Source: Bacteroidales bacterium (GTDB lineage: Bacteria > Bacteroidota > Bacteroidia > Bacteroidales > UBA932). Taken from it: a stretch of 51,455 nucleotides of DNA. Shown piece by piece: positions 46,086 through 47,320 of this stretch. The DNA lies in contig JAFTFV010000027.1 of NCBI GenBank assembly GCA_017458265.1, positions 1 through 51,455 of the forward strand, in the 5' to 3' direction. Position numbers and translations under genes: made by a program. Position 1 is the stretch's first letter. Every line of letters starts with the position of its first letter. A model generated the notes under the pieces. That model had not been told where the DNA came from and made no database searches. It was given only the letters and a program-made list of their open reading frames with translations.

Positions 46086-46115
46086 CAAATTTACTGTTTT
46101 TTACGGGATTCTCAA
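46086..46115 (-). promoter_or_regulatory. CNNM-serB operon promoter (-33 TTG, -7 TAAATTTG)
   Basis: Minus-strand TAAATTTG (46093 to 46086) with TTG 19 bp upstream (CAA at 46113-46115), which overlaps the hddC stop codon. The start at 46064 lies 21 nt beyond the box. Confidence 0.65.
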
Positions 46116-47320
46116 AGGAGGATGAAGGGGATGCCGGCGTTTTCTGCAAATGCGGCGTCAGTTTCGGAGTCGCCCAGCATGATTGCGCGTTCCATCGAGG
46201 GAAAAAGTTGTTTTGCCTCATGGTACATGCCGGGGTTAGGCTTGCGGCGGGGGTCGCCGTCGTCGGTGGCGGTGCAGGTAAGGATGGCATCTATCCGGCC
46301 GCCGGCTTCAGTGATGGCACGGAGCATGTGTGAGTGGATGTCTGCAAGGTCTTCATCTGTCATGAGTCCCCTGCCCACTCCCCTCTGGTTGGTTACTACT
46401 ATGATTCGCCTGAACTTTGCAGCCCACTTCGGGAACTCCTCCAGGATGCCGCTCAAGAACTTGAACTGATTCCGGTTTCTGACGTAATCGCCTTTAATCC
46501 TGACGTTTATAGTTCCGTCGCGGTCTATCAGGAGAGTGTCGGCATCGCTTTCTATGAGCTTTTTAGATGCGGCTTTTACCGCCCTGTACTCCGGCAGCTC
46601 GGTCTGCGCCCTTTCGTAATCTTCCGGAATGCCTATGTCCAGAAAATAACAGTCCTGAACCACACCGCACGTCTTGTATTTCAGAGGCTCCAGCACCTCT
46701 TTCTCAAATGAAAACTTCGGCGGAAAACCGCTCAAATCCAGATTATTGAGCGCATATATCCCGCCATTGATCAGCCCCTCCCTGCAGTATGCTTTTTCCC
46801 TGAATCTGAAAATCTCCACTCTGTCATTTCGAGCGGAGCCGAGAAATCTCACATCCACCGCCCCATACCTCTCAAACTCCCTCATAGGCTTCAGTGCAAC
46901 GGTAATGGGCGCGTCAAAGGTAAAAGCATTAAGGTCTACAGGAAAGAACGTGTCTCCGTTGATGACGAACACTTTTTTTCCATGGCAGTATTTGAGCGCT
47001 TCACGTATGCCGCCGCCGGTGCCAAGAGGGGTCTCCTCCACTGCAAAGTCTATTTCAAACGGATAGTTTTGTCCTGATATCCAGTTTATTATGTATTCAC
47101 GGAGGTAGCCGACGGAAAGGATAACATGGTCTGCACCCTGGTCCTGCAGCCAGTCAAGGATGTAGGAGAGAAAAGGCCGAGATTTCTCGACTTCGCTCGA
47201 AATGACAGTGGGGGCGCTCGAAATGACAGTGGGGCCGATGGGGGCCATGCATTTGGGGAGGTTGGAGACGGCGCTGCGAAGGCGGGTGCCCAGGCCGCCG
47301 GCGAGGACTATTGCTTCCAT
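46112..47320 (-). CDS. Fusion: heptose-1-phosphate guanylyltransferase (HddC-like) with HAD-IIIA phosphatase; contains in-frame repeat insertions
   Basis: A 402-residue two-domain protein. Residues 1-235 are a sugar-phosphate nucleotidyltransferase (LAGGLGTRLR, catalytic Lys23 in LPKCMAPI, GTGGGIREA, VINGDTF). Residues about 255-402 are a HAD-IIIA phosphatase (LLIDRDGTIN with Asp266/Asp268, VVTNQRGVGRG, RRKPNPGM, MLGDSETDA), the place of GmhB. With HddA next door this fits the GDP-D-glycero-alpha-D-manno-heptose pathway. The HAD zinc site of GmhB is missing (only Cys349 remains). Residues 30-48 and about 158-166 are encoded by copies of a dispersed palindromic repeat; the first lies next to the active-site lysine. 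The frame stays open. It overlaps hddA by 13 bp. Confidence 0.85.
   Translation of the reverse strand: MEAIVLAGGLGTRLRSAVSNLPKCMAPIGPTVISSAPTVISSEVEKSRPFLSYILDWLQDQGADHVILSVGYLREYIINWISGQNYPFEIDFAVEETPLGTGGGIREALKYCHGKKVFVINGDTFFPVDLNAFTFDAPITVALKPMREFERYGAVDVRFLGSARNDRVEIFRFREKAYCREGLINGGIYALNNLDLSGFPPKFSFEKEVLEPLKYKTCGVVQDCYFLDIGIPEDYERAQTELPEYRAVKAASKKLIESDADTLLIDRDGTINVRIKGDYVRNRNQFKFLSGILEEFPKWAAKFRRIIVVTNQRGVGRGLMTDEDLADIHSHMLRAITEAGGRIDAILTCTATDDGDPRRKPNPGMYHEAKQLFPSMERAIMLGDSETDAAFAENAGIPFILL
46821..46850 (+). repeat. Dispersed palindromic repeat, copy 1, inside hddC
   Basis: A 30-bp element on the plus strand, beginning CTGTCATTTCGAGC and ending GAGAAATCTC. It is an imperfect palindrome (ATTT..CGA against TCG..AAAT with a 2-nt bulge). 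It differs from copy 2 at two positions. Read on the gene strand it encodes RFLGSARND at residues 158-166 of the HddC-like protein. Confidence 0.85.
47179..47208 (-). repeat. Dispersed palindromic repeat, copy 2, inside hddC (opposite orientation)
   Basis: The same 30-bp element in reverse: GAGATTTCTCGACTTCGCTC onward, ending AAATGACAG on the plus strand. It encodes ISSEVEKSR at residues 40-48 of the HddC-like protein. With copy 1 it forms a long-range inverted pair about 330 bp apart. Confidence 0.85.
47194..47234 (-). repeat. 21-bp tandem duplication of one repeat arm
   Basis: CGCTCGAAATGACAGTGGGG occurs at 47194-47213 and again at 47215-47234, period 21 bp. On the gene strand it gives the seven-residue repeat PTVISSA-PTVISSE. 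The period is a multiple of three, so the frame is kept. Confidence 0.85.

What the first reader, a model, noticed from the sequence alone, without database searches (positions are those of the whole stretch)
46821..47234. A dispersed palindromic repeat has entered the hddC reading frame twice without breaking it
Two 30-bp copies of one element (28 of 30 bases alike) lie in opposite orientation within one gene, and part of one copy is duplicated with a 21-bp period. All changes keep the frame, adding about 19 residues (30-48) beside the catalytic lysine and about 9 residues (158-166) in a loop. Because the element is read on both strands, it yields two different peptides (VISSEVEKSR and RFLGSARND). 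From memory, peptides of this kind occur in many Bacteroidota hypothetical proteins. This resembles the Rickettsia palindromic elements that insert in frame in proteins: a mobile DNA element used as a protein linker.
Basis: partly seen in the sequence, partly recalled or inferred. Interest (0 to 1): 0.75.

Follow-up and report, generated by a model that had tools for sequence, protein, structure and literature searches.

The report
Short palindromes inserted in working genes
A gut-type bacterium carries dozens of copies of one short palindromic DNA repeat, more than half of those found sitting in frame inside ordinary genes, so that repeated DNA has become part of everyday enzymes.

Summary
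Both copies are in hddC (+46822-46849, -47180-47207), the gene is open, and 13 of 14 homologues covering site 1 have no insert there. The element is dispersed: 54 matches in the 2.13-Mb genome, none for the reversed control. With longer variants I collected 73 copies; 50 lie in ORFs, 46 of them internally, in 34 genes. 37 of 38 host ORFs match Pfam, including MurB, DapF, MetRS, CysRS, DnaX and UvrA. The 21-bp duplication is a family trait: an upstream reiteration of the 5' arm, its period a multiple of 3 in 18 of 19 in-gene cases against 3 of 9 others. The arms covary in 115 of 115 readable copies from records of several phyla. Site 2 of hddC also carries an element in one sister species and a likely remnant in another, read differently. 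It works like Rickettsia palindromic elements and resembles CGTC-tagged REPs, but differs in stem, loop and tail. How it moves is unknown: 0 of 21 Y1-domain loci checked is flanked by it. Use of the peptides as linkers is not shown.

The parts
46112..47320 (-). hddC-like gene, 402 aa: N-terminal sugar-1-phosphate nucleotidyltransferase domain fused to a C-terminal HAD (GmhB-like) phosphatase domain
   Evidence: NTP_transferase 3-193; several HAD/phosphatase models between residue 266 and 401; 5xhw/6jq8 for residues 2-238; GmhB-type structures for 261-397
47179..47207 (-). full element, site 1 (TGTC...TCTC), read in the gene's orientation as VISSEVEKS, residues 39-47
47216..47228 (-). half unit TGTCATTTCGAGC, 21 bp upstream of the full element (reiterated 5' arm)
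47208..47215 (-). 8-nt locus-specific spacer between half unit and element, GCCCCCAC; the flank before the half unit is GGCCCCAC (7 of 8 alike)
46822..46850 (+). full element, site 2, opposite to the gene, read as RFLGSARND at residues 158-166, between VDV and RVEIF

Best explanation
The repeat is a short REP-type palindromic element: a TGTC tag, a stem ATTYC/GRAAT, a GA/GA internal mismatch, and a short apex. It has spread to many places in this Bacteroidales genome. SHOWN: copies lie both between genes and inside them; the short form has no stop codon in five of its six frames; 46 internal copies sit in 34 open genes, many of them housekeeping genes. (That in-gene copies keep the frame open follows in part from how ORFs are found; Pfam matches on the same ORFs show that they are real genes.) INFERRED: it inserts at many sites, and in coding DNA only insertions of a net length divisible by three, at places that tolerate extra residues, survive; hddC has been hit twice. 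The 5' arm plus a few bases of upstream flank is then locally reiterated, most often every 21 bp here, perhaps by strand slippage at the hairpin, and again multiples of three survive in genes. The peptides are passengers, filtered by selection for a harmless frame (VISS/VIPS...), rather than designed linkers. The enzyme that moves it is not known.
For: Dispersal: 54 matches to the short form, none for the reversed control. Of 73 copies with variants, one search put 47 in ORFs (4 of them at residues 0-7, perhaps upstream of the true start); a recheck of the 26 others found three more that are in frame in Pfam-matching genes, so 50 of 73, 46 internal in 34 genes. 37 of 38 host ORFs match Pfam. 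MurB and CysRS each gave one match in the genome; hddC one strong match plus one weak paralogue. Homologues: 13 of 14 without insert at site 1. Pairing: among 127 copies whose 5' arm was fixed by the search, 115 had a readable 3' arm (defined by AATCY) and in all 115 the free base before it fits the Y of the 5' arm (51 T-A, 64 C-G). In 22 distinct 25-mers 97.0% of cells pair against 86.7% in shuffles, covariation score 0.302 against 0.123, 0 of 500 shuffles as high. Frame filter: half-unit period divisible by 3 in 18 of 19 in genes against 3 of 9 others, one-sided Fisher p 0.0014. Same-orientation internal copies use one frame in 21 of 23, or 23 of 26 with the three added copies, and 11 of 11 in sister genome G006 (loci for the first 30 of 108 places). 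Recurrent sites: hddC site 2 in G028 and, as a likely remnant, in G005; MurB in G005.
Against: Nearest-neighbour folding gives the hairpin no advantage over shuffles as DNA or RNA, so the hairpin rests on covariation. In one search two of the five measures do not exceed the shuffles (pairs with change on both sides, 313 of 500 as high; further pair types, 127 of 500), and 4 of 132 cells do not pair. No strain-level empty site was seen; insertion is inferred from homologues of about 50-83% identity. Net gains (17 and about 7 residues in hddC; small in CysRS against G003) do not equal element length everywhere, so some host DNA was lost or altered. No mobilising enzyme was found: of 21 Y1 stretches one holds an element, about 480 bp from the Y1 gene and inside a neighbouring gene; 5 further Y1-like loci of this genome show nothing that reads as an element. 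Spacers match their own flank only in part (mean identity 0.49 against 0.31 for swapped flanks; 20 of 109 at 80% or more against 1.0 expected), so simple tandem duplication is not the whole story. One in-gene case, L091, has period 20. Three of 26 same-orientation copies use another frame.
Confidence: 0.8

Rival explanations
1. The unit of selection is the peptide: VISSEVEKS-like segments are useful linkers and spread as coding DNA.
For: Strong frame bias: 23 of 26 same-orientation internal copies here and 11 of 11 in G006 give VI(S/P)SE....
Against: What covaries is DNA base pairing, which a peptide would not need. Selection against the two other forward frames (CHFERSREI, SFRAKSRN) would give the same bias.
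Confidence: 0.1
2. hddC is decaying and the inserts mark loss of function.
For: Site 1 lies close to the conserved PK motif, with 17 extra residues.
Against: The frame is open over 402 codons with a coding-like codon score (86.3), both domains match Pfam and PDB relatives, and the same state is seen in genes expected to be essential with one match each in the genome (MurB, CysRS).
Confidence: 0.06
3. The repeats are RNA elements (terminators or stability hairpins) kept for regulation, with in-gene copies as accidents.
For: 23 of 73 copies lie outside ORFs, several within 10 bp of a predicted gene end.
Against: RNA folds of the three forms and one reverse strand tested are no better than shuffles; 50 of 73 copies are in ORFs; the distribution among sister species is patchy, 16 of 37 same-genus genomes (own included) with at least one.
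Confidence: 0.1
4. Assembly artefact or contamination of this draft genome.
For: G000 is a draft of 67 contigs.
Against: Copies are spread over many contigs; the same family with the same architecture is in other assemblies from different studies.
Confidence: 0.02

Closest known systems
CGTC-tagged REPs (Di Nocera et al. 2013, PMC3733652; abstract, passages and the section on genome distribution read)
   Same: Dispersed 20-40-bp palindromes with a CGTC or TGTC tag at one end, stem opening with A-T pairs, copies inside genes, no transposase found beside them; the paper reports tRNA synthetase and uvrA hosts and Xanthomonas recB inserts at about the same site.
   Different: The four published families have stems of 8-9 bp, mostly loops of 4-5 and a mostly CCA tail. 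Here the stem is 5 pairs, a GA/GA mismatch and at least 1 pair; loops are 3 or longer; the end is ATCT(C). The reiterated 5' half unit is not mentioned in the parts that I read.
Rickettsia palindromic elements (RPE; Ogata et al. 2000, seen only as described in passages of PMC10969869 and PMC3733652)
   Same: Dispersed palindromes inserted in frame in unrelated genes.
   Different: RPEs are given as about 150 bp in PMC10969869, while RPE-4 and RPE-6 are equated with CGTC repeats in PMC3733652; the host here is a Bacteroidales; the element is 28-40 bp and has half-unit arrays.
GTAG REPs with RAYT transposases, including subclass 2.4 with REPs inside its own gene (PMC6006769, passages)
   Same: Short hairpins with a tag tetranucleotide; Y1 proteins of the RAYT size are numerous in this genus.
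   Different: No GTAG tag; none of the Y1 loci checked is flanked by the element.
[quoted passage not shown]
   Same: Palindromic DNA read as protein, scattered over distant bacteria.
   Different: A 25-residue protein motif in tandem in ORFs of unassigned function, not a short DNA element dropped into housekeeping genes.

Membership tests
CGTC-tagged REP superfamily | Unpaired CGTC (or TGTC/CCTC) tag at one end | tested here: met
   TGTC in 52 of the 54 copies (the others TGCC and GGGC); fixed by the search pattern
CGTC-tagged REP superfamily | Stem of 8-9 bp opening with complementary A-T residues | tested here: not met
   Opens A-T, T-A, but only 5 contiguous pairs, then GA/GA
CGTC-tagged REP superfamily | Loop of 4-5 bases and CCA tail | tested here: not met
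   Loop 3 in the 25-mers, longer in others; end is ATCT(C)
CGTC-tagged REP superfamily | No dedicated transposase beside the repeats | tested here: met
   None of the Y1 loci checked is flanked (21; 5); other transposase classes not tested
Rickettsia palindromic elements | In-frame insertion of dispersed palindromes into unrelated protein genes | tested here: met
   46 internal copies in 34 genes; Pfam matches
Rickettsia palindromic elements | Length of about 150 bp as given for the classical families | tested here: not met
   28-40 bp
GTAG REP/RAYT system | GTAG tag and flanking of a RAYT gene | tested here: not met
   Tag is TGTC; no flanking found

The most novel reading that the evidence does not exclude
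A family of TGTC-tagged single-strand hairpins with a GA/GA-mismatch stem and a GNA-like apex, spread over several phyla, is a repeat maker. Once inserted, it reiterates its own 5' arm with a few bases of flank, and in coding DNA this seeds new in-frame 7-residue peptide repeats inside housekeeping enzymes, without a dedicated transposase.
Probability: 0.35. Interest if true: 0.75.

Novelty: new variant of a known kind. Interest (0 to 1): 0.58.

Why it matters
In-frame palindromes are best known from Rickettsia. Here a gut or rumen Bacteroidales carries them inside 34 genes of a 2.1-Mb genome, some expected to be essential, so proteins tolerate them more widely than the Rickettsia case alone suggests. 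The number of copies, the frame bias, the recurrent sites and the half-unit arrays make it testable how such elements enter proteins and whether they ever become useful. It also warns annotators: ORFs with VISSEVEKS, RFLDFARND or ISPxASLGRND may carry repeat DNA.

Tried and rejected
Pseudogene, assembly-artefact and RNA-element readings were weighed as above. An association between Y1_Tnp genes and the element was tried: all 13 same-genus genomes with 2 or more copies have a PF01797 match against 14 of 24 others (Fisher p 0.007; Spearman 0.30, p 0.07; counts typed by hand). A protein query then found relatives of the one Y1 protein in 32 of 61 genomes, all 32 in the genus of 37, so the association may only reflect the insensitivity of the Pfam model; I do not rely on it. 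The apparent HddC match in G026 was only the element's own peptide. HddC relatives in viral contigs: none found. Rfam: no hit in the window. Thermodynamic folding did not support the hairpin. Published sequence or peptide: none of the 23 papers listed for the DNA strings is on bacterial repeats by its title; 0 papers for the peptides; the papers used here came; one search also lists coding palindromes in nematomorph mitochondria (PMC6649704) and Rickettsia genome papers, which I did not read. Only openly licensed PubMed Central papers are searched.

Full report
What is there. The finding's two copies are as read, lie in opposite orientation in an open 402-codon gene, and the copy at site 1 has a partial second copy 21 bp upstream. 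The protein is a sugar-1-phosphate nucleotidyltransferase fused to a HAD phosphatase; the best PDB relatives are a 'putative 6-deoxy-D-mannoheptose pathway protein' (5xhw, 6jq8; that this is Campylobacter HddC is recalled) for the first domain and heptose bisphosphatase-type structures for the second. Of 18 other loci compared, 14 cover both sites. At site 1 the insert is 17 residues and absent in 13; the 14th (G028) has a different palindromic minisatellite there. At site 2 the window's protein is 7 residues longer than 10 of 14, 8 longer than one, 2 longer than two, and one homologue is longer. At site 2 G028 carries a TGTC-type element read as CHSERSEES, and G005 has a likely remnant: 17 of 20 bases alike by my count on the DNA, read as VIPSEAS. 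So of nine same-genus HddC genes, the window's and two others carry element-like DNA there, in three different readings.

How common. In the window's genome the short form has 54 matches at up to three mismatches and the reversed control none. With longer stems and up to two mismatches I collected 73 copies in fetched stretches (not a full census of variants). A codon model trained on the genome's own loci put 47 in ORFs; four of these lie at residues 0-7 and may precede the true start, leaving 43 in 31 genes. A recheck of the 26 others found three more with an open, coding-like frame on both sides, and all three ORFs match Pfam: a glycosyltransferase, a tRNA pseudouridine synthase and a GH88 enzyme. 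That makes 50 of 73 in ORFs, 46 internal in 34 genes, still perhaps an undercount. Of 38 host ORFs 37 have a Pfam match at E 0.001 or better; the exception is in L090. Hosts include MurB (two elements), DapF, methionyl- and cysteinyl-tRNA synthetase, DnaX (two), UvrA (two), a Mur ligase, a poly(A)-polymerase-type nucleotidyltransferase, a SpoU methylase (two), prephenate dehydrogenase, a penicillin-binding protein, peptidases, transporters and glycoside hydrolases. MurB and CysRS each gave one match here; that such genes are essential is general knowledge, not tested.

Frames. In the gene's orientation 21 of 23 internal copies are read as VI(S/P)SE... (binomial against one third, p about 1e-8). 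With the three added copies it is 23 of 26; the GH88 copy, a 38-mer, is read as LSFRPERS. In the sister genome G006 it is 11 of 11 (loci for the first 30 of 108 places; 19 of the 40 copies seen there are in ORFs, some of them of a further palindrome). Copies are not independent in ancestry, so p values are guides. On the other strand the 28-bp form is read as RFLDFARND (3) or DFSTSLEMT (5), never in the frame that holds TGA, and the 36-bp form in 9 of 10 as ISPxASLGRND or close variants.

The half unit. Upstream of many copies stands TGTCATTYCGAGC plus a pyrimidine-rich spacer. In this genome the period is a multiple of three in 18 of 19 in-gene cases and 3 of 9 others (half units found with up to two mismatches). 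The 80 titles shown include Bacteroidales, Chloroflexi, Dehalococcoidia, Desulfobacteraceae, Ruminococcus, Nitrospinae, Omnitrophota, Aeromonadales and Coriobacteriales. There the period runs from 18 to 25, the upper end being the limit of the search; multiples of three are 42 of 72 where some open frame of at least 120 codons spans the site and 28 of 93 otherwise (several pairs can come from one array, and an open frame is not proof of a gene). The spacer resembles its own upstream flank more than other flanks, most at the two bases next to TGTC (0.71 and 0.60 against 0.39 and 0.31), and 20 of 109 are at least 80% alike against 1.0 expected. I read this as local slippage at the hairpin followed by divergence, but the half units stay exact while spacers differ. 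The searches demanded exact half units, which explains part of this; repeated insertion or conversion is not excluded.

Structure. In one search the 5' arm was fixed and the 3' arm free: 115 of 127 copies had a readable 3' arm and all 115 kept T-A or C-G at the varying pair. In 22 distinct 25-mers from the phylum survey that pair is T-A 10, C-G 9, T-G 2 and unpaired 1; the inner pair round a three-base loop is C-G 10, G-C 7, A-T 1, T-G 1 and unpaired 3. The GA of the 5' arm was fixed by the pattern; the opposite GA is at least 90% conserved. The outer pairs were largely fixed by the search, so only the two varying pairs carry weight. The apex GCGAAGC of the long form is a known very stable DNA mini-hairpin (PMC4686876, passages), but standard folding energies do not favour the hairpin over shuffles.

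Distribution and movement. 114 of 296 genomes of the phylum (own included) have at least one match and, by my count of the table, 37 have ten or more; the reversed control matched once, in one genome. In the genus 16 of 37 genomes (own included) have at least one and the highest count is 108. The contig length of G006:C19 equals that of a record titled Bacteroidales bacterium RGIG8170 from water buffalo rumen, so the genus is very probably a rumen or gut Bacteroidales; I did not name the window's own species. None of the Y1 transposase loci checked is flanked by the element (21; 5); the single copy in those stretches lies in a neighbouring GH3 gene, about 480 bp from the Y1 gene.

Against what is known. 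Di Nocera et al. (abstract, passages and all of the section on genome distribution read) describe CGTC/TGTC-tagged REPs without a transposase and with intragenic copies, and equate two of them with Rickettsia RPE-4 and RPE-6. The present family shares tag and habit but fails their stem, loop and tail definitions, so I file it as a new variant of a known kind and not as a member of their four families.

Noticed in passing
L063 about 880-1085 (G028 hddC): A different palindromic minisatellite (TCGAGCAC...GTGCTCGA units) sits in frame at the same place as site 1 of the window's hddC.
   Followed up: partly
L281, L283, L297 (G006): Head-to-tail pairs of two different element forms (short form, then the TTTCGACC long form) only 4-5 bp apart.
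   Followed up: no
L271, L286, L295 (in ORFs); L270, L273 (outside) (G006): A further palindrome of the type TGTCATCCCGAGGAGCG..CGACGAAGGGATCT, in ORFs read as DPFVAxxPRDD.
   Followed up: no
L239 (G005 murB): MurB of a sister species has elements at the same FAD-domain place as MurB of the window's genome, in a different make-up; G003 has none there.
   Followed up: partly
G000:C57, C50, C28, C20, C61 (L300, L308-L312): Six matches to one RAYT-like Y1 protein in this genome (the weakest at E 6e-5), of which the Pfam model found only one; the genus seems rich in them.
   Followed up: partly
L009, L016, L021, L032: Copies just upstream of genes, where the element or its flank offers a TTG-type start in frame with the gene; true starts unknown.
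   Followed up: no
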